Assembly: GCA_000470535.1 (NCBI GenBank)
Contig: CBRG010000077.1
Location: 1 to 64,000 of the forward strand
Source: Streptomyces sp. AW19M42
GTDB taxonomy: Bacteria; Actinomycetota; Actinomycetes; Streptomycetales; Streptomycetaceae
Reading direction: 5' to 3'
DNA: 64,000 nucleotides
Shown here: one piece after another, positions 36,437 to 49,948 of the stretch
How the letters are laid out: each line of letters begins with the position of its first letter
Position numbering within the stretch: position 1 is the stretch's first letter
The notes under the pieces: generated by a model
Databases searched by the model: none
Told to the model about the DNA's origin: nothing
What the model saw: the letters and a program-made list of their open reading frames with translations, nothing else
Translations under genes and position numbers: made by a program

Positions 36437-36529
36437 TGCCTGCCGCGGTGCGCGGCTCAGCCGTCGCGCCTCAAGGCGCTCTGTTTGGTCACCCGGGTCG
36501 TCTCCGGAGACCGGAAGAGTCATCTTGAA

Positions 36530-37223
36530 CTGAAGCCAGGGACGGTCTTCTCTGATCGCGGAGCGGCCGGACGAACTGCGGTGTCGGGGTGTAGGCCGAG
36601 GACGCTCGCGAGAACCGGTGCGGCCAGGTCACCGGAGAGCGCGACCAGGGCCGTGTTTCGGGCTGGCCTCGTGTCGATGCCGTGCGCCAGGAGTTTCGAG
36701 CCAAGGCCGGTCTGTGAGGTGGGACGGCCCGGGACGAGGCCAGGGAAGAGCCATGGCTCGCCTCGGTCGGTGCGGGTGAGGGCGGCCCGGGTGTGGGGCG
36801 CTTCCGCCAGCCGGTGCAGGAGTCTGGCGAGCCGGGGCGGCAGCAGGATCGGGTGCCGACCGATGGTGAGGTAGCTGTTGCCATCGCGGCGGGTGCTGGA
36901 CGGGCCGTTCGACTTGGCCTGTCCAACGGTGCCGCAGCTCACGCAGGTGTGCTGAGAGCTTCCCAGCAGGACACGCAGAGCGGAGAGTTGTCCGGTCGGC
37001 GGGTGACCGGCATGCGGGGTTGGCCGCAGGAGGCGCATTCCTCGACGACGTCCGCGTCGACGCGGTAGCAGGAGTAAAACAGCGGTCCAGTACGGCTTTT
37101 GTCGCTGTTCGGCTCGCCGACGGTCGCGAGCCTTGCTCATAGTCCCACGGGGCGACGGATCGTGGTCCGGCGGGCAGCCGGCAACGGCCGGAGAAGTGTT
37201 TCGCCTGCGGTCTTGCGGATCAT
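36530..37223 (-). pseudogene. Zinc-ribbon protein of an integrase module, degenerate
   Basis: On the - strand an ATG at 37223 overlaps the HTH stop codon (ATGA) and begins MIRKTAGETLLRPLPAARRT then TIRRPVGL, ending at an early stop. Later pieces in other frames read CYRVDADVVEECASCGQPRM and RRPDNSPLCVSCWEA (Cys-x2-Cys pairs), then HTCVSCGTVGQAKSNGPS. They continue with YLTIGRHPILLPPRLARLLH and LLAHGIDTRPARNTALVALS. This order matches a Streptomyces family that accompanies tyrosine recombinases: repeated zinc ribbons and a C-terminal helical domain. Multiple stops and frame changes show it is dead. Confidence 0.6.
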
Positions 37224-37462
37224 CTCGTGACGACGCGGACTTCGATGAGGTCGCCGGGTTGGCAGCCGAGGATCTCGCAGAGCGCCGCGAGGGTGTCCGT
37301 CGAAAGCCGTTGTGGGGGCTGGGTGACCAGGCGGAATACCTGTTCCCGGGACAGGGTGGCGCCTCGCTCAGCGAGCGGGCCGACCAGGTCGGTCGTCTGG
37401 AACATCTGCCGGGTGGCCATGATCTGCCGCAGGTGCCACTGGTAGCCCATCTTCTTGATCAC
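37220..37462 (-). CDS. HTH (Cro/C1-type, HTH_26-like) regulator of the integrase module
   Basis: 80 residues from a GTG at 37462. The XRE-type HTH is ATRQMFQTTDLVGPLAERGA, TLSREQVFRLVTQPPQRLST and DTLAALCEILGCQPGDLIEV. This small protein commonly lies between a tyrosine recombinase gene and the zinc-ribbon gene in Streptomyces, sharing an ATGA overlap with the latter, as here. It is the only intact reading frame of the three. Both flanking partners are broken, so it may persist without a function. Confidence 0.78.
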   Translation of the reverse strand: MIKKMGYQWHLRQIMATRQMFQTTDLVGPLAERGATLSREQVFRLVTQPPQRLSTDTLAALCEILGCQPGDLIEVRVVTR

Positions 37463-37468
37463 GTCTCG

Positions 37469-37621
37469 TCATCCCCAGAGTCCGGCGGGCCTTTCCTTCA
37501 ACATCCGCTGGAGCCGCCGGTTGCGGTACTCGTCCGAGACGCCGGTGCAGATCGCGGTGGTGCTGGCGTAGGCGTGGCCGACCTGCTGCTGGATTATCTT
37601 GAGCTGGCTCGCCCCATCGTG
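37469..37621 (-). pseudogene. Tyrosine recombinase (integrase) C-terminal remnant, Tyr replaced by Cys
   Basis: On the - strand the frame ending at 37469 reads ASQLKIIQQQVGHAYASTTA then ICTGVSDEYRNRRLQRMLKE and RPAGLWG before the stop. Intact relatives have AIYTGVSDEYRN, in which Tyr is the nucleophile. Here the codon TGC (37547-37549 on the complement) replaces TAC. The conserved GHAYASTT segment precedes it. The rest of the gene is missing upstream. It belongs to the same module as the following HTH and zinc-ribbon genes. Confidence 0.7.
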
Positions 37622-37730
37622 TGCTGACCTGCGTGTTCGCATCGCAGTGCTTGCACATGACGTAGCGGATGAGATAACGGGTGCTTCCTCCGCCGAAGGC
37701 GGATCGTTACCGACCTCGGACTGTCTCCAT

Positions 37731-37782
37731 GTGCTAGCGGCATGCCGTCTCTCTATGCGCTAGCGGCATGCCGTCTCTCTAT
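37731..37782. repeat. 26-bp tandem repeat, two copies
   Basis: A 26-base unit, G(T/C)GCTAGCGGCATGCCGTCT followed by CTCTAT, is repeated head-to-tail at 37731-37756 and 37757-37782 with one mismatch. It lies upstream of the integrase remnant in a stretch (37.63-38.1 kb) without a recognisable gene, and may mark a former attachment or control site. Confidence 0.75.
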
Positions 37783-38078
37783 AGCCGCAGGGCGCTCCCG
37801 CAGATCAGAATCTTTGATCATTACTCTCGAGGGTCCACCTCTGGGCAGAGCCCAAAGCCCTCGTCGCGCACGTCCAGTGGAACGCCAGATATCCACTCAA
37901 ATGGATGACGTCATCTTTTCCCATTTCTGATGGGCCGCCTCCAGAATCCTGATGAGGAGGTCACCGTTTCGGATCGGACGCGCATAGACCCCATGGGGCG
38001 CGAACTGAAATCGGACAGGACGGCCTCGAATCTGGTTAGGGGCTCATTTGAGCAAAGCAGGCAGTTACGGTTTCGTCT

Positions 38079-38109
38079 GTCTGGCACATCTCGTCGGGGT
38101 GTGCCAGAC
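38079..38109. repeat. Perfect 10-bp inverted repeat upstream of a small ORF
   Basis: GTCTGGCACA (38079-38088) and its complement TGTGCCAGAC (38100-38109) flank an 11-base loop and end 15 bases before the TTG of the small membrane ORF. This could be an operator or an RNA hairpin controlling that ORF. Confidence 0.6.
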
Positions 38110-38124
38110 CGGAAGGGAATTGCC

Positions 38125-38244
38125 TTGACCTCCATTCACGTTGCTCTTGTAGCAGGGGTGTTCGTCCTGGCCGCGGCCATCATCGGCCCGGTCACGGCGT
38201 ACTTCCTGACCCTCCGCGCCGATCGAAAGCGCCTGGACCCCTGA
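38125..38244 (+). CDS. Putative small single-span membrane protein
   Basis: A 39-codon frame begins with TTG at 38125, with GGAAGGGA seven bases before it. The peptide, beginning MTSIHVALVAGVFVLAAAII and ending TAYFLTLRADRKRLDP, is one long hydrophobic helix followed by a basic tail, which would orient the C-terminus to the cytoplasm. An inverted repeat precedes it. It may be a phage- or element-encoded small protein or a non-functional frame; there is no second piece of evidence. It lies between the integrase module and the IS remnant. Confidence 0.4.
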   Translation: MTSIHVALVAGVFVLAAAIIGPVTAYFLTLRADRKRLDP

Positions 38245-38365
38245 CCTCGGGCTTTCGCGTGGCTGGCTGTCCGATGCGTGATCGGAAACGCGAAGAACGC
38301 TCCTGACCTGCAACGATGGGACTTATCTAAGGTCCGGGTCGTCGCATGAAAGAAGCACTCCTCGG

Positions 38366-39744
38366 GTGAAGAGGCGTATCGGGTCCTATCCGCGTGTCCG
38401 CATCGAAGGCGGCGGGAGCGGGGTGGTCTCGCAGGCCGGCGGAGTGCTGCTGGTCGAGACCGCCCGTAAGCCCGGCCTGGACAGGGCGATATCGGCGGCA
38501 CTGACGCCGTGGCGGCGGCCTCGGGCTGTGCCTGATCCGGGCAAGATCCTGCTGGACGTGGCTCTCGCGGTCGCGCTGGGCGGAGACTGCCTGGCCGATG
38601 CGGGGATGGTGCGGGCCGAGCCGACGGTGTTCGGGCCGGTGGCCTGCGGCCCCACGGTCTCCCGGCTGATCGACACCCTCGCCGCGGCCGGGGGGCAAGG
38701 CCCTGACCGCGATCCGCTCGGCCCGGGCCGAAGTACGCGAGCACGTCTGGACGTTGGCCAAGGGCACGGTACCGGATGCGGCAGGTCAGGTGATCGTGGA
38801 CCTGGACGGAGCGCTGGTGTTGGCCCACTCCGACAAGCAGGACGCGGCCGCGACCTGGAAAAAATGGTTCGGACATCACCCCCCCCTGATGGGCTTCGTC
38901 GAACCACGGAAGCGGCGGCACCGGAGGGCCGGTAGCAGCCCTGCTGCGGCCTGGGAACGCGGGATCCAACACCGCCGCCGACCACATCACCGCCACCCGG
39001 CTCGCCCTGGCCCAGCTCCCCAAGCGCCACCGCCGCGGACGGTCCGCACTGATCCGTACCGACTCCGCGGGCGGCACCCACGAGTTCTTCGCCTGGCTCA
39101 CGAAGCGGGGCAAGGTGGCTGTCGTACTCGGTCGGAACGACCATCACCGAGCAGATCCATCAGGCCGTGCTGAGGGTCCCGGCCTCCGCCTGGGCCCCGG
39201 CGGTCGAGCCGGGCGGCGAGATCCGCGAGGGCGCCTGGACCGCCGAACTCGACGGCGACGCCCTCAAGGGCTGGCCGAAAGGGATGCGGCTGATCGTCCG
39301 CAAGGAACGGCCCCACCCCTGAGCCCAGTTGCGGTTCACCGACGCCGACGGACTGCGGCTCACCTGCTTCGCCACCAACACGACAGGATCGAAGATCACC
39401 GATCTCGAACTGTGGCCCTGCCCCCGGGCCAGGGCAGAGGACGGTATGCGCAACGCACGGGCCACCGGCCTGCGGAACCTTCCCCCGCACCAGACCGCGC
39501 AGAACCGGGTCCGGCTGGAGATCGTCCAGCTCGCCCTCGACCTGCTCGCCTGGACGCCGATGCTCACCTTGACCGGCAAACCCCGCCCCCGGGAGCCCGC
39601 CGCGCGGCTGCGGCTGTTCTCCGCCACTGCCAACTCATCACCGCCGCTCGCCGACGGCACCGGCGATTCGCCCGCCACTGGCCGTGGACCGACGTGGTAA
39701 CAGAAGCGATCAGCCGGCTCGACGCCCTCCCGAACCCAGGCTGA
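38366..39744 (+). mobile_element. IS1380-family transposase, degenerate
   Basis: The frame starts SYPRVRIEGGGSGVVSQAGG and VLLVETARKPGLDRAISAAL, characteristic of Streptomyces IS1380 transposases. It then shifts: a G-run of six near 38697 moves ALTAIRSARAEVREHVWTLA out of frame, and a further change near 38908 shifts SNTAADHITATRLALAQLPK. RTDSAGGTHEFFAWLTKRGK keeps one catalytic Asp. An in-frame TGA at 39320-39322 interrupts before AQLRFTDADGLRLTCFATNT. The C-terminal LPNPG end is kept. The element cannot encode an active enzyme. Its exact ends are not clear; the sequence GAAAGGTCGAGGCTA at about 39895 may be near the 3' terminal repeat. Confidence 0.8.
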
Positions 39745-40337
39745 CCAGCAACAACCCGACCCGACGAGCAGAAGAGCCACCGACCGGGACCGTGGAACCC
39801 GGCGTCCACCCGATACGACGATCGGGCCACCTACATGCCCACCCCCGCGACAGAACGATGAATCGGCCGCCAGCCGACGCTGACGACCGATCACGAAAGG
39901 TCGAGGCTAACCTTTTCGCAACGAGATTCGAGGATCGAGCGTGCAGTCAAGCCGACGCGCGGAAAGCCTCACGAGCAGTCCTCCGGACCCGAGCGGCCCC
40001 GTCGTGAGGTAACGGTCCGCTGGTCAGGCAGGGTTTCAAGGGGCACTCGGGGTAATCTGCCCGGCTCGGAGGACTTGCTCGTCTGATCGAATGCGACCGA
40101 GTCGGACCACTCCTGCGCTGTTAAGTGCGCGGATCTTTCGGCGAAGTACCCATCCGTAGGCACGCCTACAGCATAGGATCGTGCCGCGCCACCGGGGTCC
40201 CGCCCGCCCCTTCTGCCCCATCCGTTACGGCGCAGATGATGTGCCGACGTCCCCCAACCAAGCCCCCCACACAATCCGTTAACAGGTATCTGCGTGTCAC
40301 CGATACTCAGCACCGGTTCCGGCGATGGAGCCGCGCA
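39745..40337. other. No recognisable gene
   Basis: About 590 bases separate the IS1380 remnant from the sensor kinase start. The first part probably includes the 3' end of the IS. No protein or RNA gene is recognisable; the promoter of the kinase operon must lie in the right half. Confidence 0.5.
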
Positions 40338-42719
40338 GTGAAGATCAATCGTCGCCTCGTACTTCTCGTCACCGCGCCGCTCACCGTGGCCGTCACCTTC
40401 TCGGCGCTGGCCCTCGCACCGGCGGCCAACCACGCGCTCCAGGCCGACCGGCTGGCCGCGATGGTCGATGCCGCTTCCAGCGCGGGCGAGTTGGCCCACC
40501 AGCTACAGCGTGAGCGGGCGGCAGCCACCGCACTGGTCTCCAAACAGGGAGATGCGAACGCGTTTCGCTCGACCTCCGATTCGACCGATGAAAGCATCGC
40601 CGGGTTCAAGGGCCGGATCGGGCATCTGTCCGAGGTGCCCGACAGCGCACAGGGCGCGCTGGACCGTATCGAGCGCTTCATCGAAGAGATGCCCGCCCTG
40701 CGCGCCCAGGTGCGCTCGGGCAGCAGCACCATCTCCGCGCTCGCCTTCGGCTACCGGATCGTGATCGCCGACCTCAACAGCTACCGCGACGGCATCGCAC
40801 AGGCGGACGGGGTCGACGCCGGTATCGCCGACCGGATCCGCGCCGCCGCCGCCCTTTCCGAGGCAGCCGAGCACACGGCCCAGCAGCAGGTCACCGTAAT
40901 GAGGGCGCAGGCCGCGGGCGGCTTCACGACCGCCTCGCAGCGGACGTTCGACGCCAGCCGGCTGGGCTACACCGAGTCGGTCGGCGTCCTGTTCGACCTC
41001 GGCCCCGGCCAGTGGCGGACCTGGCTGGAGCGCACCCTCTCCGGCCCGAAAGCTCTGGCGGCCCGACGGCTCGAGGACGAGATCGGTCGCGCCGGAACGG
41101 GCAAGGACATCGCCGTCCCGGCGAAGGAGTGGCAGCAGGCGTTCAACGACCGCCAGATGCTGATGCGCTCGGTGGAGAAACGGATCGACGAATCCGTCCT
41201 CGCCACGGTCAGGGACGCGCGCACCACGCTCATGTGGACAGCCGGGGCCGAGGTCGCCCTGGTGGTGCTGACCCTGGTCGGTGCCTTCGTCGTCGCCATC
41301 CGCCTGGGCCGCGTCATGATCCGGCGGCTGCGCGATCTGCGCAACGCCGCGCACGAGGTCGCCCACACCGGGCTGCCCGCCGTGATGACTGAGCTCTCCC
41401 AGCCCGGCGCGCTCAGTGGCGCGACGCCCGAGGAGGTGGCCCGGCGAACGGGCAACCCGGTCGGGACGACAGGCAAGGACGAGATCGGCGAGGTGGGCGA
41501 GGCGTTCAACGCCGTTCACCACCAAGCCGTCCGACTGGCTGCACAACAGGCCTATATCCATGAGCAGTTCGCTGAGACACTGGTTGGCGTCGCACGCAGG
41601 GGCGCGCAGTTGACCGCTGTCATGGTGTCCGAGATGGACACGGTCCAGCGCGACGAGGCCGACCCCGTGCGGATGCGGACCTTCTTCGCTCTCGACCACC
41701 TCGCCATCCGTATGGAGCGCAACACCAACAGCCTGTTGGTACTGGGTGGTTACGGGCACGCCCGGGTCCGCACGTCCGACGCCGCCTGTTCCACCGTCAT
41801 CGTGGCCGCCGCCCAGCAGATCGAGCGTTTCGACCGCGTCTCGCTCGGTGTCGTCGAAGCGGGTATCGGCATCGCTGCCCGCGCCGTGCACGACGTGGCC
41901 CACATCCTGGCGGAACTCCTGGACAACGCGACCAGGTTCTCGCCTCCCGACAAGCAGGTCGGCGTCGCCGTGTGGCGGCTGGCGGACCGGGCCGTGGTGC
42001 AGGTCGTCGACGAGGGCGTGGGTATCCCCGCGGATCGCCGCGCCGTCCACAACGCCGCCCTGCGCGAACCGAAGGCGGGCATCGGAGACGTACGGGCCAT
42101 GGGTCTGCGCGTGGTGGCACGACTCGCCGCGCGTCATGGCATCGTTGTCGAACTGCGCGACTCCTCCGGTCCCGGCACCATCGCCGAGGTCACCCTGCCC
42201 GCAAAGGTGCTGGCCACGGCCCCCGATGAGGCCACACCACCCCCGAACGCGGTCGGCGCGGATCGGGGCCACGACCGCGGTGTGCGCTACGAAACGCCTC
42301 GTCCGGTCACTGCGTCGGGACCGCCCCGCCGCAATCGGCCGGACGGAGCGGGCCCGCGGCCCGACCGCAACGGCACCCCGATCGGTGCGGTGGCCGGCGG
42401 CGCCACGCGTGAGCGGGAAGACAGGACCACGCCCGTCCCACATCCCGTGCGCGACGAATCGGTTTCGCGCAACGCCGCGGTCAGCTCCTCGGGGCTGCCC
42501 CTGCGCCAGCGCGGCACGCCCCAGCAGTGGCCCAGCCTGGGCAAACGGGACAACACCGAACAGCGTGCCGGCAGCACCTCGCCGAGGCCGTCGCCCCGCC
42601 GCCGCGACTCCCGGCAGGTCTCCGATGTCCTGGCGGCCTACGCCCAGGGAATCAACAGGAGTACGAACCACCGCGGGCGCTCCGCCACCGACGACGACAC
42701 CGAACGGACCAAGAAATGA
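40338..42719 (+). CDS. Conservon-type sensor histidine kinase with NIT domain
   Basis: 793 residues from the GTG at 40338 (VKINRRLVLLVTAPLTVAVT), chosen because GGAG precedes it; the upstream frame is not conserved. A signal-anchor helix is followed by a ~280-residue extracellular nitrate/nitrite-sensing (NIT) type helical domain (AGELAHQLQRERAAATALVS). A second helix follows (LMWTAGAEVALVVLTLVGAF), then a HAMP-like linker. The phospho-acceptor region is FFALDHLAIRMERNTNSLLV, and the ATPase contains LAELLDNATRFSPP and VVDEGVGIPADRRAV. A disordered Pro/Arg-rich C-tail follows. It overlaps the Roadblock gene by ATGA. This matches CvnA of Streptomyces conservons, but the typical CvnC and CvnD partners are missing. 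Confidence 0.9.
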   Translation: MKINRRLVLLVTAPLTVAVTFSALALAPAANHALQADRLAAMVDAASSAGELAHQLQRERAAATALVSKQGDANAFRSTSDSTDESIAGFKGRIGHLSEVPDSAQGALDRIERFIEEMPALRAQVRSGSSTISALAFGYRIVIADLNSYRDGIAQADGVDAGIADRIRAAAALSEAAEHTAQQQVTVMRAQAAGGFTTASQRTFDASRLGYTESVGVLFDLGPGQWRTWLERTLSGPKALAARRLEDEIGRAGTGKDIAVPAKEWQQAFNDRQMLMRSVEKRIDESVLATVRDARTTLMWTAGAEVALVVLTLVGAFVVAIRLGRVMIRRLRDLRNAAHEVAHTGLPAVMTELSQPGALSGATPEEVARRTGNPVGTTGKDEIGEVGEAFNAVHHQAVRLAAQQAYIHEQFAETLVGVARRGAQLTAVMVSEMDTVQRDEADPVRMRTFFALDHLAIRMERNTNSLLVLGGYGHARVRTSDAACSTVIVAAAQQIERFDRVSLGVVEAGIGIAARAVHDVAHILAELLDNATRFSPPDKQVGVAVWRLADRAVVQVVDEGVGIPADRRAVHNAALREPKAGIGDVRAMGLRVVARLAARHGIVVELRDSSGPGTIAEVTLPAKVLATAPDEATPPPNAVGADRGHDRGVRYETPRPVTASGPPRRNRPDGAGPRPDRNGTPIGAVAGGATREREDRTTPVPHPVRDESVSRNAAVSSSGLPLRQRGTPQQWPSLGKRDNTEQRAGSTSPRPSPRRRDSRQVSDVLAAYAQGINRSTNHRGRSATDDDTERTKK

Positions 42720-43120
42720 CCTCTCCCACCGACCTGAGCTGGATCCTGAGCGGTTTCGCCGGGCGCATCCCGGAAGTCACCCAGGCGATAGCCGTGTCCG
42801 TGGACGGCCTCGCGCTGGCTTACACCGGTGTGGAACGTGACGACGCCGAGCGGCTGGCCGCCATCGCCTCGGGCGTCGTCAACCTGCTTTCCGCCGCGGC
42901 CCAGTTGACGAACACCGATCCCGTCGAGCACAGCCTCACCGCCATGGAGGGCGGCTACATGTTCTCGATGGCCGTCTCCAGCGGCGCGTCCCTGCTGGTG
43001 ACCACCACCAGGGACGCGGACATCGGTGAGGTCAGTTACATGATGTCCGAGCTGATCAACCAGGTCGGTGACTCGCTGTCCCCCCAGGTCCGCGACGCGA
43101 GTATGCCCCCTTCGCGCTGA
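42716..43120 (+). CDS. Roadblock/LC7-domain protein (CvnB-like)
   Basis: 134 residues. The sequence LSWILSGFAGRIPEVTQAIA, VSVDGLALAYTGVERDDAER and LAAIASGVVNLLSAAAQLTN then MEGGYMFSMAVSSGASLLVT is a Roadblock/LC7 fold, the small GTPase-associated dimer of conservons (CvnB). Its ATG overlaps the kinase stop codon. No DUF742 (CvnC) or Ras-like GTPase (CvnD) gene follows. Instead, an ABC importer operon starts within 57 bases. It may have its own partner elsewhere or directly link the kinase to transport; this is inference. Confidence 0.92.
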   Translation: MTSPTDLSWILSGFAGRIPEVTQAIAVSVDGLALAYTGVERDDAERLAAIASGVVNLLSAAAQLTNTDPVEHSLTAMEGGYMFSMAVSSGASLLVTTTRDADIGEVSYMMSELINQVGDSLSPQVRDASMPPSR

Positions 43121-43176
43121 TCCGCGTCGTCGTGTACGTCGATCCCCCTCCGAACCGGTCCCGCCCGATACTCCCG

Positions 43177-44388
43177 ATGAGAGCCCTCATGTTCTTCGAC
43201 ATATCCAGTCCCCGCCGCCGCAGACTCCGGCCGGCCGTGGCCGCCACCCTCGCCCTCGGTCTGGCAGCCGCCACCGGATGCACGAGCGACAGCGGGGACG
43301 ACGACACGGTGAAGGTCGGCCTGGTGGCCTCCCTGTCCGGCACCTACGAGCCGGTCGGCACCGAGCTGCGAGCCGGTTTCGAGCTGTACCTGAGTACCCA
43401 CGACCACAAGCTGGGTGGGCGCAAGGCCGAACTCGTCGTGGCGGACGAGGGCGACGGTCCGCCGACCGCCGTTCCCGCGGCGACCAAACTGGTCAAGAAG
43501 GACAAGGTCGACGTGCTGACGGGTCTCGTCAGCGGTGGCTCGGTCAACGCGGTGCTGCCCCTGGTCAACCAGGCCAAGATCCCCTTCCTGGGGTCGAACG
43601 GCCGGCCGCCCGTCAAGGACCTCGAGTACGTGTGGACGACGAGCTTCCTGTCCGACGAGCCGGGCAAGGCCATCGCCCCGTACGTCAAGAAGAACGTCGA
43701 CGGACCGGTCTACGCGATCGGCCCGGACTACCAGGGCGGGTACGACGAGCTGCGCGGCTTCACCAAGGAGTTCAAGCGGATCAACGGGAAGCTCGCCAAC
43801 CCCGGCGGCAAAACCACCTGGACGCCGTTCCCGAAGACCACCAACTTCATGCCGTACTTCGCCGATATCGCGAAGACGGACGCCAAGGCGGTGTACTGCT
43901 TCTACGCCGGCAAGGCCGCGATCGACTTCGCCAAGCAGTACGCCCAGTCCGACATCGCTGATCTGCCGCTGTACACGGCCTTCGTGACCGAGGGCAGTGT
44001 GCTCCAGGCGCAGGGCGCCGCGGCGAAGAACATCTACTCGGTCTTGAACTACGCGGCCGACCTCGACAACGAGGCCAACCGCAAGTTCGCCGCCGACTGG
44101 ACGGCCGAGCACGACACGCAGCCCACCACGTACGCCATGGCGTCGTACGACGCGGCCGCCGTGCTGGACAAGGCGATCGCCAACGCGGTGAAGAACGGTG
44201 ACGTGACGCCGAAGACCATCAACAAGGCCATCGCCGACCTGGGCCAGATCGACAGCCCGCGCGGGGCCTGGGAGTTCGGCGACAAGGCCCACTCGCCGGT
44301 GCAGACCTGGTACCTGCGTCAGGTGCGGCCGGACGGCGCCCAGCTGGCCAACGTCATGGTCCAGGACCTGGCGACGCTCGGCAGCTGA
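43177..44388 (+). CDS. Branched-chain amino acid/amide-type ABC substrate-binding lipoprotein
   Basis: 403 residues from the ATG at 43177; an internal ATG at 43189 is an alternative. The signal peptide ends in a lipobox (LAAATGC), so the mature protein is membrane-anchored by a diacylglyceryl-Cys. The domain VKVGLVASLSGTYEPVGTEL, LVVADEGDGPPTAVPAATKL, and VDVLTGLVSGGSVNAVLPLV belongs to the LivJ/LivK/UrtA type-I binding proteins. Ligand class may be a branched-chain or other amino acid, urea or an amide. The downstream permease and ATPase genes form the complete importer, in one operon with the kinase and Roadblock genes. Confidence 0.92.
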   Translation: MRALMFFDISSPRRRRLRPAVAATLALGLAAATGCTSDSGDDDTVKVGLVASLSGTYEPVGTELRAGFELYLSTHDHKLGGRKAELVVADEGDGPPTAVPAATKLVKKDKVDVLTGLVSGGSVNAVLPLVNQAKIPFLGSNGRPPVKDLEYVWTTSFLSDEPGKAIAPYVKKNVDGPVYAIGPDYQGGYDELRGFTKEFKRINGKLANPGGKTTWTPFPKTTNFMPYFADIAKTDAKAVYCFYAGKAAIDFAKQYAQSDIADLPLYTAFVTEGSVLQAQGAAAKNIYSVLNYAADLDNEANRKFAADWTAEHDTQPTTYAMASYDAAAVLDKAIANAVKNGDVTPKTINKAIADLGQIDSPRGAWEFGDKAHSPVQTWYLRQVRPDGAQLANVMVQDLATLGS

Positions 44389-44389
44389 T

Positions 44390-46443
44390 ATGGGACTCCT
44401 TGATGCCCACCTCATCCCGGCGGTGGACGGCGTGGCCTACGGGCTGCTGCTGTTCGTGGTCGCCGCCGGTCTGAGCCTCGCCTTCGGCACCGCCGGCGTG
44501 CTGAACCTCTCGCACGGCACGCTGTACGCCATCGGCGCCTACACGGGGGCGGAACTGAGCGACGGCACCTGGGGCGGCCTCGCCCTGGGGCTGGCCGCCG
44601 GAACCGCGGCTGCGTGTGCCGCCGGGGCGGGGCTGTCGGCCGCGACGGCACCGCTCGCCGGGCGTGGGCATCTCGCTCAAGCACTGCTGACATTCGGACT
44701 CGCTCTGATCGGCGGTGATCTGCTCATCCAGCTCTTCGGGGCGGACGAGCTCCCGGTACGTGTACCCGAGGCGCTCGACACCTCGGTGAAGCTACTGGGC
44801 CACCGGTACCCCGCCTACCGGCTCGGCTTCATCGTGATGGCCGTGCTGCTCGCGGCGTTCGGCACCTGGGTGCTGACCCGGACCCGCATGGGCACGGCGG
44901 TACGGGCGGCCGCCGACGATCCGCAGATGCTCGCGACCACTGGGCACAGCCCCCGGGCCGTGCACACCGGCGTGCTCGCGGCGGCCGGTGCGCTGGCCGG
45001 TGCGGCGGGCGTGCTCGGGGCCCCGATCATCGGTCCCGGACCCGGAACGTCCGAGAACGTGCTGATGCTGTCCCTCGTGGTGGTCGTGCTCGGCGGACTG
45101 CGCTCGCTGTGGGCGACGCTCGCAGCGGCGGTCGCCGTGGGCGAGGTGCAGACGCTGGGAGTCTCGGTGGCGCCGGACCTGGCGCCGTACCTGCTCTTCG
45201 CCGCGATGGCGGCGGTGTTGGCGGCCCGCTCCCGCTTCGCCGAGCCGGCGACCGGGCAGGGACCGCAAGGCCCGTCACCGGACCCGGTCGCCCGGCTCCG
45301 CCGCCACCTCTCCGCACGGCTGCGGCCCGGCGGGGCGACAGGTGCGGGCGGTGCGCCGGAGGCGTCCTCCGGTGCGAAGTCCGCGGCGGGAGGCAGGAGC
45401 GCGCTCGCGGGTCTCGGACGGCTTCCGCGCGGCAAGGCGTGGCGGCAGGCCTCCCCACTGCTCGTGCTGCTCGTGGTGCTGATCGCGTTGCCGGGGGTGC
45501 TCGACCCGTACAGCATCTCGCTGGCCGGGTCCGCCCTGGCTCTGGGGCTGCTCGCGGTCAGTGTCACCGTCCTCACCGGGTACGCGGGACTGCCCACCCT
45601 CGGACAGACCGCGCCGTTCGCCGTCGGCGCGTACGCCACCGCGAATCTCGCGGACGCCGGGTGGACCATGGGCCCGGTCCAGATCATCCTCTCGGCACTC
45701 GCTGCCGCGGCCTTCTCCGTCCTCACCGGCCCTGCCGTGATCCGGGCCCGCGGCACGACCGTCCTGATGATCACGCTCGCCATCGGTGAGCTGACCGGCG
45801 CGGTCATCAACCAGTTCAAGTCCGTCACCGGCGGCGCCGACGGTCTCGTCGGCTTCCCGGCCACGCAGGCGCTGTGGAGTGGGGAGGGGATGTCCGAGGA
45901 GAGCGACCTCTACACGTACGCGCTCGTCGTCGCCGCCATCGCCGTCGCCGTCACCCTGCTCGTGCTGCGCTCCCCGGCCGGGAAGCTGCTGACCGGCACC
46001 CGCGGCGCCGAGGCCCGGATGCGCGCCTCGGGGCACCCGGTGGGGCGCTACCTGCTGGTGGCGCACGTCTGCGCCGGCGCGCTGGCCGGCGTCGGCGGCT
46101 CGCTGATGGTCACCGTCCAGCAGTACCTCTCCCCCGCCGACGTCGGCTTCGAAATCGCGGCGTTCGCGCTGCTGGCGGCAGTCATCGGCGGTACGACGTC
46201 CGTGATCGGCGCCCTGCTGGGCGCCGGGCTCATCGTCACCACCCGGGACTGGGTGGCCAGTTCGTGGCCCGGTCACGGCCCGTTGCTGCTCGGCGGACTG
46301 TTCGTCGCCGCCGTGTACCTGCTCCCCCGCGGGCTGGCCGGACTGCGCCGATCCGGCCGGACCGGGCCGGAATCCGGCGGGCCTCGGCCGGACGAGCGGC
46401 CCCCGTCCCCGCCCACCCCGAGCCACGCCGGGAAGGTCTCCCC

Positions 46444-46447
<4 letters not shown>
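44390..46447 (+). CDS. Fused ABC permease (LivH-LivM)
   Basis: 685 residues, with the start one base after the previous stop. The N-terminal half (~1-280) is a LivH-type permease: GLLLFVVAAGLSLAFGTAGV, LNLSHGTLYAIGAYTGAELS. A linker rich in Ala/Gly/Ser (~285-345) leads to a LivM-type half: LGLLAVSVTVLTGYAGLPTL, GQTAPFAVGAYATANLADAG and VIGGTTSVIGALLGAGLIVT. Normally these are two genes; here one chain carries both. The predicted total is about 16-18 membrane helices. It ends in a Pro/Gly-rich tail overlapping the next start (ATGA). It provides the transmembrane channel of the importer. Confidence 0.92.
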
Positions 46448-47310
<863 letters not shown>

Positions 47311-47320
47311 CCGGCCCCCC

Positions 47321-48079
47321 ATGCTCGAACTCACCGGCCTGACCGCGGGCTACCACGGTGGCACCGTCCTCCACGGGCTCGACCTGTCGGTGCCCGCCGG
47401 CACGGTCCACGCCGTCGTCGGCCACAACGGCGCGGGCAAGACCACCCTCGTCCACACCGTCGCCGGACTCATGCGTCCCGACGCCGGCACCGTACGCCTC
47501 GACGGGCGGGACGTGACGGGGCAGCCCGCACACCGGATCGCCCGTGCCGGGATCGGCATCGTGCCGCAGGGCCGCCGCGTGTTCGCCGGGCTGACCGTCG
47601 CCGAGCACCTGCGCCTGTCCTACCGCCCGCCGCGACGCGGTGACACCTCGCGCCCCAGCGTGTGGACTCCCGCGCGTGTCCTGGAGCTGCTGCCCCGGCT
47701 GGGCGAGCGCCGCGGCAACCGGGGTTCGGCTCTGTCCGGTGGCGAGCAGCAGATGCTGGCCCTGGCCCGAGCGCTGCTGGGATCGCCGAGCGTGCTACTG
47801 CTCGACGAGCCGACCGAGGGCCTCGCTCCCATGCTCGTCCAGCAGGTTCACGAGCTGGTCACCACGCTGGCGGGCGAGGGCATCGCCGTACTGCTGGTGT
47901 CCCCCAGCCCGGCCCGGGCGGCCGAGTGCGCCCGTACGCTCACGGTCCTCACCTCGGGGCGGCTGACGCTGCGCATGGACGGCGCGGACGCCCGCGCCGA
48001 TGCGACCGCCCTGCACGCCGCACTCGAACTCTCGTCGGCCGCCGTCCGGGACGGGGGCGGTACGGACGCGGGGCGGTGA
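47321..48079 (+). CDS. ABC transporter ATP-binding protein (LivF-like)
   Basis: 252 residues from the ATG at 47321. Walker A is GHNGAGKTTLVHTVAG, the Q-loop region GIGIVPQGRRVFAGLTVAEH, the signature GSALSGGEQQMLALARALLG, and Walker B SVLLLDEPTEGLAPM. After it the switch region reads AVLLVSPSPARAAECART, in which the usual switch His ('VEQ/EHN' type in LivF) is not evident. It ends the importer operon, with a hairpin overlapping its stop codon. Together with LivG it energises uptake of the unknown ligand. Confidence 0.92.
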   Translation: MLELTGLTAGYHGGTVLHGLDLSVPAGTVHAVVGHNGAGKTTLVHTVAGLMRPDAGTVRLDGRDVTGQPAHRIARAGIGIVPQGRRVFAGLTVAEHLRLSYRPPRRGDTSRPSVWTPARVLELLPRLGERRGNRGSALSGGEQQMLALARALLGSPSVLLLDEPTEGLAPMLVQQVHELVTTLAGEGIAVLLVSPSPARAAECARTLTVLTSGRLTLRMDGADARADATALHAALELSSAAVRDGGGTDAGR

Positions 48080-48115: not shown

Positions 48116-49333
48116 CTACCGGGCCTTGATGCTGTGGCCGCCGAAGCCGCTGCGCCGGTCGGAGCCGCTGTTCTGGTCCTGCCACCACACATCGAACTCC
48201 GGCTGGCCCATGGCCGACCAGTCGGGGGTGTTCTCGACCTGCGCACTGCCCATCCTGCGCGCGAGCGCGACCATGGCCGCCCCGACTCCGCCCCGCCCGG
48301 CGTCGTAGGTGTCCAGGACCTCCTTCCAGCTGGTCCCAGCCACCCACGCGGCCTCCAGGGCAGTGGCGTCCTGGAGCGCCTTCACGCTCCCGCCGCCGAT
48401 GTGCGGCCGGGCGACACTGGCGGCATCACCGACGAGCACCATCCGACCCGAGGTGTAGTGCGGAACCTCCAGGTCGTAGATGGGCTGGATGAAGGTGGTC
48501 TCGGCGGGCGTACGGAGCACCCTGGCCGCCCAGTACGGCGGGAAGTTGTCCGCGACCAGGGCGCGCAGGTACGCAGTGAGCTCCGAGTTGAGCCGGCCCG
48601 GCGGCAGGGAGGTCGGGGTCCGCAGGTCGGGGTGGAGCCCGTCCGTCTGCGGAGGCGTCGTGTAGAGCACCCAGTTGAGCAGGTGCCCGCCGGCGCCGTC
48701 CGGGATGCGGTAGATCATGCAGTGCCCGCCGGGGAACACGATGTTGTGCGCGTCGTATCCGTCCGAGGGGAGGCCCTCGACGTCCGACGACGTCCCGCGC
48801 CAGCCGATGTAACCGGCGTACGCCGCGTCCGCACCGGGAAACATGGCCTCCCGGACGACGGAGCGGTACCCGTCCGCCCCGATCACCACGTCGAAGTGCT
48901 CCTGGTGCCCGTCCTCCAGCCGCAGCGTCACCCCGTCAGCATCCGGCTCCACACCGGTCACCACCGCACCGGACCGGTAGGAGACCTTCTCGGGCACCCG
49001 GCGGCGCAGTTCGCTCCACAAGGAGCCCCAGCTGTACGCACGGAAGGGGAACGGCTGCTCACCGACAACGCGTCCGTGCTCCGCATCGCCGTCGCGCTCG
49101 CTCCACACCCGTCGGCTCAGTGGCGCCCAGGGCATCTCCGGGGCCACGTACCCGGCGTCCCTCAGTTCGTCGAACCGGTCGCTGTGCAGGGCGATCCCCA
49201 CTCCCCTGTCACGGAGCCGGGAGTCGGCGCGCTCAAGGACGGTGATCTTCTCGGCTCCGCCGCGCGACACGGCCAGCGCCGCGGCACACCCCGCTATGCT
49301 GCCGCCGACCACGGCGATGCTGCCTCCACGCAT
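48116..49333 (-). CDS. FAD-dependent monooxygenase (class A, PHBH-like)
   Basis: 405 residues from the ATG at 49333, with GAGGAG eight bases before; a GTG at 49351 in the same frame is less well placed. Rossmann motif GxGxxG-like GGSIAVVGGSIAGCAAALAV is followed by KITVLERADSRLRDRGVGIA. The DG motif appears as HFDVVIGADGYRSVVREAMF, and the GD motif as SGRMVLVGDAASVARPHIGG. This is a group A flavoprotein hydroxylase that uses NAD(P)H and O2 on a small aromatic or polyketide-like molecule. It is convergent with the ABC operon; a functional link is not shown. Confidence 0.92.
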   Translation of the reverse strand: MRGGSIAVVGGSIAGCAAALAVSRGGAEKITVLERADSRLRDRGVGIALHSDRFDELRDAGYVAPEMPWAPLSRRVWSERDGDAEHGRVVGEQPFPFRAYSWGSLWSELRRRVPEKVSYRSGAVVTGVEPDADGVTLRLEDGHQEHFDVVIGADGYRSVVREAMFPGADAAYAGYIGWRGTSSDVEGLPSDGYDAHNIVFPGGHCMIYRIPDGAGGHLLNWVLYTTPPQTDGLHPDLRTPTSLPPGRLNSELTAYLRALVADNFPPYWAARVLRTPAETTFIQPIYDLEVPHYTSGRMVLVGDAASVARPHIGGGSVKALQDATALEAAWVAGTSWKEVLDTYDAGRGGVGAAMVALARRMGSAQVENTPDWSAMGQPEFDVWWQDQNSGSDRRSGFGGHSIKAR

Positions 49334-49513
49334 GACTGGCGCTCCTCTCACTCAGTTGTCCGGTCGCCGTTCCGGTTACTGCCACGCCGGCGTGACCGGT
49401 CGCAACCCCGCGTGAATCGACGCTCGTTGTCCCGATCCGTACGACCGGGACCCGGATGGAACCCTATCGAGGAGAAGGGGGCCCGGGGGCGCTGGAGTTG
49501 ATCACGGGCGGGG

Positions 49514-49850
49514 ATGGAGGTGTCCATGACCGTGCTGATGTTCTGCATCGCCTTCGGGCTCCCGATGGACGACGAGGTCTTCGTCACCAGCCGCATCAAG
49601 GAACTTCACGACCTGGGCGAGGACAACGAGTCGGCCGTGACGAACGGCCTCGGGCACACCGGACGCATCGTCGGCGCGGCGGCCTGTCTCCTCGCGGTGA
49701 GCTTCCTCGCCTTCGGAACGGCCGAGCTCAGCTTCAGGCAGATGTCCGGCCTGGGCAGCGGCCGCGCCATCCTCATCGACGCCGTCGCCGTCCGCGGCGT
49801 CCTCGTACCCGCCGCGATGCGTGGTCGTGAAGCACCAACCGTCGAAGGGA
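49514..49850 (+). pseudogene. MMPL/RND-type transporter, C-terminal fragment
   Basis: The frame LMFCIAFGLPMDDEVFVTSR, IKELHDLGEDNESAVTNGLG and HTGRIVGAAACLLAVSFLAF then RAILIDAVAVRGVLVPAAMR matches the last third of actinobacterial MMPL lipid transporters. In these the motif is normally GLSMDYEVF; here Tyr is replaced by Asp. Everything upstream is missing, and the C-terminal cytoplasmic tail is cut. It is flanked by the nrdJ terminator. This is a decayed remnant and not a gene for a functional carrier. Confidence 0.75.
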
Positions 49851-49883
49851 GGGGCGTCAGCCAAGAGCTGACGCCCCTCCCTT
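49845..49883. terminator. Terminator hairpin downstream of nrdJ
   Basis: Perfect 17-bp arms AAGGGAGGGGCGTCAGC (49845-49861) and its complement (49867-49883) with loop CAAGA lie about 70 bases beyond the nrdJ stop codon. Confidence 0.85.
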
Positions 49884-49948
49884 TCACAGATCACGGCTTC
49901 TAGGTGCGGTTACGTCGGGTGTTGCATCCGACGCGGTTCCGCCCGGTA

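What the first reader, a model, noticed from the sequence alone, without database searches (positions are those of the whole stretch)
40338..48079. Half a conservon wired into an ABC importer operon
CvnA-like kinase and CvnB-like Roadblock genes overlap and are followed directly by a branched-chain-type binding protein, a fused LivH-LivM permease and two ATPases. The usual CvnC and CvnD (GTPase) are absent. The NIT sensor domain outside the cell and an amino acid/amide-type importer suggest an integrated nitrogen-compound sensing and uptake system, apparently undescribed.
Basis: partly seen in the sequence, partly recalled or inferred. Interest (0 to 1): 0.6.

Follow-up and report, generated by a model that had tools for sequence, protein, structure and literature searches.

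The report
Sensor kinase operon with nutrient importer
In many soil actinobacteria the front half of a G-protein-like signalling operon has been kept next to a small-molecule importer, probably one for aromatic acids, and has apparently lost its GTPase twice, which suggests that the importer's binding protein is the sensor's antenna.

Summary
Window 40338-48079 encodes a NIT-HAMP-ATPase kinase (CvnA type), an overlapping Roadblock protein (CvnB type), a binding protein, a fused LivH-LivM permease and two ATPases; CvnC and CvnD are absent. The linkage is old: 68 of 68 named relatives with at least 3.5 kb upstream carry kinase and Roadblock directly before the binding protein (64 without GTPase, 4 with it, none with CvnC). 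Binding-protein relatives without a conservon fall outside that clade. The Roadblock tree rejects one GTPase-less clade, so the GTPase was probably lost twice (Streptomyces, Micromonospora); the binding-protein tree does not decide. ATP-site and LPxR residues are invariant in 78 of 78 kinases, but the presumed phosphoacceptor His is Asn in 24 of 24 of the Micromonospora group. Two lineages keep kinase, Roadblock, GTPase and binding protein but no importer. A separate GTPase-less pair sits in a TRAP-TAXI operon. I read the binding protein as sensory partner of the kinase. The nitrogen reading is not supported: the binding protein best matches 4-hydroxybenzoate-binding proteins. No description was found in the held library. 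New variant of conservon.

The parts
40279..40307 (+). weak sigma-70-like promoter match before the kinase
   Evidence: 1 found in the region, 0.3 expected in shuffles; not evidence of function
40338..42719 (+). CvnA-type kinase: N-terminal TM (by eye), extracytoplasmic NIT (40488-41198), TM, HAMP-like, DHp with LDHLA, HATPase, C-terminal tail
   Evidence: NIT AF2 model pLDDT 91, only NasR 4AKK at E<=0.001 in the PDB; ATP-site residues invariant
42495..42506 (+). LPxR motif (LPLR) of the CvnA tail
   Evidence: motif described in PMC4316618 section 18; Arg in 78 of 78 kinases
42603..42653 (+). conserved C-terminal segment of the kinase, RDSRQVSDVLAAYAQGI
   Evidence: pattern found in 77 of 79 kinases; one miss (L084) is cut by N, the other is L139
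42716..43120 (+). CvnB-type Roadblock/LC7 protein; overlaps the kinase stop
   Evidence: best solved relative CvnB5, 3LEQ, 1.6e-21; median 93% identity to 33 close Streptomyces, kinase 75%
43189..44388 (+). substrate-binding protein (Peripla_BP_6), lipobox by eye, benzoate-type by homology
   Evidence: start at ATG 43189 is inferred (43177 and 43132 also possible)
44390..46447 (+). fused LivH-LivM-type permease
46444..47310 (+). LivG/UrtD-type ATPase
47321..48079 (+). LivF/UrtE-type ATPase
48116..49351 (-). convergent FAD monooxygenase (PRK07236-like; nearest solved relative 2,6-dihydroxypyridine hydroxylase), conserved neighbour
   Evidence: in 45 of 45 Streptomyces loci with at least 5.5 kb downstream; with the importer-less paralogue in family f3

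Best explanation
A conservon-derived sensory module whose antenna is a solute-binding protein. Shown: kinase and Roadblock have been inherited with one family of binding protein, in most loci with its ABC importer; a GTPase lies between Roadblock and binding protein in several relatives and is missing in Streptomyces and Micromonospora; the binding protein stays with kinase, Roadblock and GTPase in two lineages where the importer is absent. Inferred: the lipoprotein captures a small aromatic acid; the liganded binding protein, or its engagement by the importer, is sensed by the NIT ectodomain; the kinase answers by ATP-dependent conformational change rather than phosphotransfer and passes this through its LPxR/C-terminal tail to the Roadblock dimer; the Roadblock then controls a GTPase where one is encoded, and in Streptomyces and Micromonospora either a GTPase from another conservon or a new partner. 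In Streptomyces a convergent FAD monooxygenase probably hydroxylates the imported compound.
For: Linkage: 68 of 68; one change of 'conservon present' on the binding-protein tree, SH-aLRT 97 and 98. GTPase variants; a single GTPase-less clade is rejected on the CvnB tree, p-AU 0.008. Antenna: in family f3, 8 of 8 paralogous loci seen whole read kinase-Roadblock-GTPase-binding protein with no match to the importer permeases; 6 of 8 have the FAD enzyme within 1.4 kb, one about 7 kb away, one not; named locus L092 (Allorhizocola) likewise has no importer gene in 9 kb downstream. Parallel case: TRAP permease - TAXI protein - kinase - Roadblock - second TAXI protein, no GTPase. Signalling without phosphotransfer: His to Asn in 24 of 24 of the Micromonospora group while N-box, G1 and LPxR residues are invariant in 78 of 78. 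Ligand class.
Against: No interaction, expression or ligand data. In 76 of 77 linked loci of the main set with at least 5 kb downstream all four importer functions follow, so the importer is also a near-constant partner; the sister group of the linked binding proteins is five stand-alone ones without kinase or importer. Genomes with GTPase-less loci carry other conservons, so a GTPase in trans cannot be excluded. On the binding-protein tree one GTPase-less clade is not rejected, p-AU 0.36, and the GTPase tree is unresolved. In Streptomyces the phosphoacceptor His is kept in 44 of 44. The FAD enzyme is missing from 24 of 24 non-Streptomyces named loci checked. The TAXI case was seen in two genomes of one genus only, and not in 29 other TAXI loci.
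Confidence: 0.48

Rival explanations
1. The Roadblock protein acts directly on the importer: it binds the LivG/LivF ATPases or the permease and gates uptake according to the kinase state.
For: The Roadblock superfamily is predicted to regulate NTPases (PMC4316618 passages); all four importer functions follow in 76 of 77 linked loci with at least 5 kb downstream; GTPase loss could reflect a switch of partner.
Against: GTPase-bearing relatives have the same importer; the f3 paralogues and L092 keep kinase, Roadblock, GTPase and binding protein without any importer.
Confidence: 0.18
2. The pair is a GTPase-less conservon that uses a GTPase encoded by another conservon; the importer is only a co-regulated target or neighbour.
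For: 12 Roadblock proteins in this genome and GTPase matches at 7 of its other conservon loci; a second conservon kinase lies 0.7 to 1 kb beyond the FAD gene in 8 Streptomyces loci; most CvnB columns conserved in GTPase-bearing systems are kept.
Against: Does not explain why binding protein and pair stay adjacent in every lineage seen, nor the importer-less loci, nor the TRAP-TAXI parallel.
Confidence: 0.22
3. Decaying conservon remnant that happens to lie beside an importer.
For: CvnC and CvnD are missing; orphan CvnB genes by GTPase loss are known (PMC4316618 section 14).
Against: Roadblock has the highest median identity in close Streptomyces, 93%, with LivH 92%; catalytic residues invariant; adjacency in 68 of 68.
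Confidence: 0.03
4. Uptake of a nitrogen compound (amino acid, amide, urea) sensed by a nitrate-type NIT domain.
For: Second-ranked structural matches include LivK, urea-binding proteins and AmiC; NIT fold supported.
Against: Best matches by sequence and fold are benzoate-type; Urt and Liv cut-offs missed.
Confidence: 0.12

Closest known systems
Conservon / actinobacterial G protein system (Cvn1-13 of S. coelicolor)
   Same: NIT kinase and Roadblock in the same order; LPxR tail; Roadblock nearest solved relative is CvnB5
   Different: No CvnC (DUF742) match just upstream of the binding protein in the 80 named loci; GTPase absent here; followed by a binding protein and ABC importer instead of CvnE/CvnF
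Orphan MglB/CvnB genes of Actinobacteria (PMC4316618, section 14)
   Same: Roadblock flanked by conservon genes but without the GTPase
   Different: That survey reads them as gene loss; the section names no transporter; here the pair is conserved with an importer
R. palustris HbaE aromatic ABC importer binding protein (RPA0668, 4EVQ)
   Same: Fold and sequence (Z 48.7, rmsd 1.5 over 346 residues)
   Different: 31-33% identity; ligand not tested here; no kinase mentioned in the passages seen
Binding-protein-sensing receptors (LuxP-LuxQ, ChvE-VirA; recalled, not looked up)
   Same: Proposed logic: an extracytoplasmic binding protein presents a ligand to a sensor kinase
   Different: No homology claimed; here the kinase has a NIT domain and a Roadblock partner, and no response regulator lies in the operon

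Membership tests
Conservon / AGPS | CvnA: kinase-like protein with HATPase (often NIT) domain | tested here: met
Conservon / AGPS | CvnB Roadblock directly after CvnA | tested here: met
Conservon / AGPS | CvnC (DUF742) | tested here: not met
   about 70 bp between Roadblock stop and binding-protein start; no CvnC match just upstream of the binding protein in the 80 named loci, one CvnC used as query
Conservon / AGPS | CvnD small GTPase | tested here: not met
   absent here; present between Roadblock and binding protein in 4 of 68 named loci and in the family f3 loci
Conservon / AGPS | LPxR motif in the CvnA C-terminal extension | tested here: met
Classical two-component system | cognate response regulator in the operon | tested here: not met
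   none of the six operon products is one; elsewhere in the genome not tested
Urea or branched-chain amino acid importer (Urt, Liv) | NCBIfam cut-offs | tested here: not met
   e.g. UrtA 66.5 against 492.75, UrtD 204.7 against 304.1, LivG 157.9 against 362
Benzoate-type aromatic importer | binding protein closest to benzoate/4-hydroxybenzoate binders among solved structures | tested here: met
Benzoate-type aromatic importer | binds an aromatic carboxylate | not testable with these tools
   no assay; pocket residues not inspected
NIT nitrate sensor | NIT fold | tested here: met
NIT nitrate sensor | nitrate-binding arginines | not tested
   sequence profile did not reach NasR; no residue mapping made

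The most novel reading that the evidence does not exclude
Kinase-Roadblock pairs are a free-standing signalling module that listens to solute-binding proteins of unrelated transporters (ABC here, TRAP-TAXI in Micromonospora-type genomes), signals by an ATPase cycle without phosphotransfer, and needs neither CvnC nor the GTPase; the conservon GTPase is an optional output.
Probability: 0.35. Interest if true: 0.8.

Novelty: new variant of a known kind. Interest (0 to 1): 0.62.

Why it matters
How conservons sense and what they control is an open question. This locus gives a natural experiment: the same kinase-Roadblock pair with and without its GTPase, with and without an importer, and with a lost phosphoacceptor. 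It offers a concrete candidate input (a binding protein and a likely ligand class) and argues that the LPxR arginine is not merely an arginine finger for the operon's own GTPase, since it persists where the GTPase is gone.

Tried and rejected
Chance adjacency and decay: rejected by the survey and by conservation. Urea/BCAA identity: under the curated cut-offs. Loss of a GTPase-contact residue in the Roadblock: position 76 is Glu in most GTPase-bearing Roadblocks, Ala in 50 of 50 Streptomyces and Gln in 26 of 26 of the Micromonospora group without GTPase, but the two Dactylosporangium loci that keep the GTPase also have Gln, so it is not a clean marker. GTPase tree: unresolved, one clade not rejected (p-AU 0.24); the GTPases of L091 and L139 are divergent and lack a stretch before the TTxAMDFG region. 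L139 (G445) may be a separate conservon-importer association: inside the binding-protein clade but on a long branch, outside the Roadblock clade. A first one-clade test on the Roadblock tree (p-AU 0.001) had the linked paralogue L160 labelled generic and L139 labelled linked; with L160 in and L139 out the clade stands at 98/94. NIT versus PDB by sequence found nothing relevant. Viral contigs: no relative of the Roadblock. Paper search was badly framed (the five papers listed hold no conservon) and is not used. Rows dropped: duplicates L026, L119, L120, L122 (same loci as L078, L040, L044, L079) from trees and counts; kinases under 600 residues (cut by contig ends; L107 looks frameshifted) and, L084 (run of N); three very divergent Roadblocks from the column count; trees use a hand-picked 54 or 64 binding proteins of those held. 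The 80 named loci are the best 80 of 139 found; the other 59 were not seen. CvnC and CvnD were sought by tblastn with one CvnC and two CvnD queries, so very divergent ones could be missed.
Full report
What is there. The reported genes are real: a CvnA-type kinase (40338-42719), a Roadblock protein overlapping its stop (42716-43120), a Peripla_BP_6 binding protein with a lipobox by eye (43189-44388), a fused LivH-LivM permease (44390-46447) and two ATPases (46444-47310, 47321-48079). The fold of the ectodomain was predicted from 16 sequences (pLDDT 91); the only PDB match at E<=0.001 is the NIT protein NasR. Nothing resembling CvnC or CvnD fits between Roadblock and binding protein.

Is it conserved. 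A scan of named bacterial and archaeal genomes with a binding-protein alignment gave 139 relatives, of which the best 80 were kept (Streptomyces, Micromonospora, Dactylosporangium, Actinorhabdospora, Allorhizocola). Of the 68 loci with at least 3.5 kb upstream, 68 have kinase and Roadblock directly before the binding protein: 64 without and 4 with a GTPase in between, none with a CvnC match. Of the other 12, six show both genes, one shows the Roadblock, and five start within about 120 bases of the binding protein. All four importer functions follow in 67 of 68 named loci with at least 5 kb downstream (76 of 77 with the unnamed ones); the exception is L092, Allorhizocola. Within the genus the close form is uncommon: 7 of 61 genomes, this one included, have a binding protein at least 70% identical, and 4 of 61 have a 49-51% identical one; those four lack the conservon. 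In all, 15 more distant binding-protein loci (49% identity or less) have no conservon; 10 of them have the importer, 5 are stand-alone. Control: in 22 other Roadblock-bearing loci of three genomes, 0 match this binding protein or its permease halves. Of the 26 control loci scanned, three gave no Roadblock match and one a kinase only, and some are short.

History. On the binding-protein tree the presence of the conservon needs one change (SH-aLRT 97 and 98). GTPase-bearing versions sit in another family of the same order (f3), in Dactylosporangium, in Actinorhabdospora and Allorhizocola, and in one divergent locus of G445. Streptomyces and Micromonospora lack it. The Roadblock tree joins the Micromonospora group to Dactylosporangium (100/99) and holds Streptomyces apart (100/99). 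It rejects a single GTPase-less clade (p-AU 0.008), whereas the binding-protein tree does not (p-AU 0.36). Two losses are the simplest reading; the GTPase tree itself is unresolved.

What stays and what goes. In the 78 full-length kinases examined, the N-box Asn, G1 Asp and Gly and the LPxR Arg are invariant. The C-terminal segment after LPxR is found in 77 of 79 kinases. So ATP binding and the tail are under constraint, phosphotransfer is not needed everywhere, and the LPxR motif does not depend on a GTPase in the operon. PMC4316618 (sections 14 and 18 read) describes the motif, is cautious about its role, and reports orphan Roadblock genes. The Roadblock is 93% identical (median) to the window's in 33 close Streptomyces loci, against 75% for the kinase, 88% for the binding protein and 92% for the LivH half.

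The binding protein is a constant partner. In family f3, 10 of 14 genomes searched (10 of 10 of genus g3) have a second, paralogous binding protein. Eight such loci seen whole (L171, L174-L180) read kinase - Roadblock - GTPase - binding protein with no match to the importer permeases; six have the FAD monooxygenase within 1.4 kb (L171, L174, L176-L179), L175 has one about 7 kb away on the other strand, L180 has none; L181 is cut but has it. The paralogues are sister to the f3 importer-type binding proteins (SH-aLRT 92), so the importer was probably lost there. L092 is a second, named case without importer. In G014 the only FAD homologue at E<=1e-20 is the one in this locus, and in G017 the only one is the one 7 kb away. 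The same enzyme is in 45 of 45 Streptomyces loci with enough sequence, mostly convergent after the last ATPase, and in 0 of 24 non-Streptomyces named loci checked. Named Micromonospora loci instead have a cytochrome P450 upstream and a methyltransferase downstream in 23 of 24 each.

A parallel case. Among the control loci one GTPase-less pair in G371, a genome of the Micromonospora group, is part of a head-to-tail set: TRAP fused permease (TIGR02123, over cut-off) - TAXI binding protein - NIT kinase - Roadblock - second TAXI binding protein (TIGR02122, over cut-off). Kinase, Roadblock and TAXI protein are also together in G445; the permease there was not looked at. This Roadblock is outside the importer clade. 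Of 30 TAXI loci fetched in a class-wide search, only this one had the pair within the 1.5 kb held on each side, so the association is rare. A transporter that already has a binding protein, plus a further one directly after the Roadblock, fits a sensory role of the latter.

Likely ligand. The best solved relatives by sequence are 4EVQ/4EVR (1.6e-62), 4EY3, 4EVS, 4ZPJ and 4F06; the next is at 1.7e-22. By predicted fold (pLDDT 87) the first five entries are 4EVQ, 4EYG, 4EY3, 4EVS and 4F06 (Z 48.7 to 44.6), four of them titled as complexes with 4-hydroxybenzoate or vanillate (the ligand of 4F06 is cut off in the listing); then 4ZPJ 43.0, LivK 42.8, a urea binder 41.4, AmiC 40.6. RPA0668 and RPA0985 bind benzoate and 4-hydroxybenzoate (PMC3223731 and PMC6079105, passages). 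The FAD enzyme's nearest solved relatives are 2,6-dihydroxypyridine hydroxylase (1e-29), tropone monooxygenase and salicylate hydroxylase. This points to an aromatic acid, not a simple nitrogen compound. It is homology, not an assay.

Literature. Searches for conservon with ABC transporter, with Streptomyces, with substrate-binding protein, and for roadblock with related terms listed no paper that, by title, abstract or the passages seen, describes a conservon-importer operon. The 2026 census of these systems (PMC13343842; abstract, section 5 and passages) has no 'transporter' or 'ABC' in its main text and reports that accessory proteins accompany kinases lacking sensor domains. PMC8510531 and PMC9739842 were seen as passages only. 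The held library lacks most subscription journals, and supplements were not searched.

Verdict. A real, conserved and apparently undescribed variant of the conservon, best read as a kinase-Roadblock module listening to a binding protein, with the GTPase optional. Shown: anatomy, linkage, absence of parts in some lineages, invariant residues. Inferred: sensing through the binding protein, ATP-driven signalling, aromatic ligand, output.

Noticed in passing
L199 6007-13149 (G371) and L162 (G445): NIT kinase - Roadblock - TAXI binding protein without GTPase, in G371 directly after a TRAP permease and another TAXI protein: a second kind of uptake-linked half conservon.
   Followed up: partly
L171, L174-L181 (family f3); L092 (Allorhizocola): Conservon A-B-D followed by a binding protein but no importer genes; in most f3 loci an FAD monooxygenase follows. 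L181 is cut and shows only binding protein and FAD enzyme.
   Followed up: partly
Micromonospora loci among L093-L118, plus L127 and L140: 24 of 24 kinases examined have Asn in place of the presumed phosphoacceptor His; in the 24 named Micromonospora loci a P450 lies upstream and a methyltransferase downstream in 23 each.
   Followed up: partly
L042, L055, L066, L068, L069, L071, L072, L074: A second conservon kinase match begins 0.7 to 1 kb beyond the FAD monooxygenase in these Streptomyces loci; a possible source of a GTPase in trans.
   Followed up: no
L091 8411-8905 and L139 9179-9913: GTPases of these linked loci are divergent and lack a stretch before the TTxAMDFG region; possible intermediates of GTPase loss.
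   Followed up: partly
L130, L131, L136-L138: Stand-alone binding proteins (no importer, no conservon) that form the sister group of the conservon-linked binding proteins.
   Followed up: no
window 49514-49903: 129-residue ORF matching only positions 201-299 of the 333-position MMPL family model: probably a fragment of a membrane transporter gene.
   Followed up: partly
window 36500-40100: Stretch before the kinase with few convincing coding ORFs by third-position GC; may hold remnants of mobile elements.
   Followed up: no
L189, L198, L202: Further Roadblock genes without a CvnC or CvnD match and without a binding protein seen nearby.
   Followed up: no
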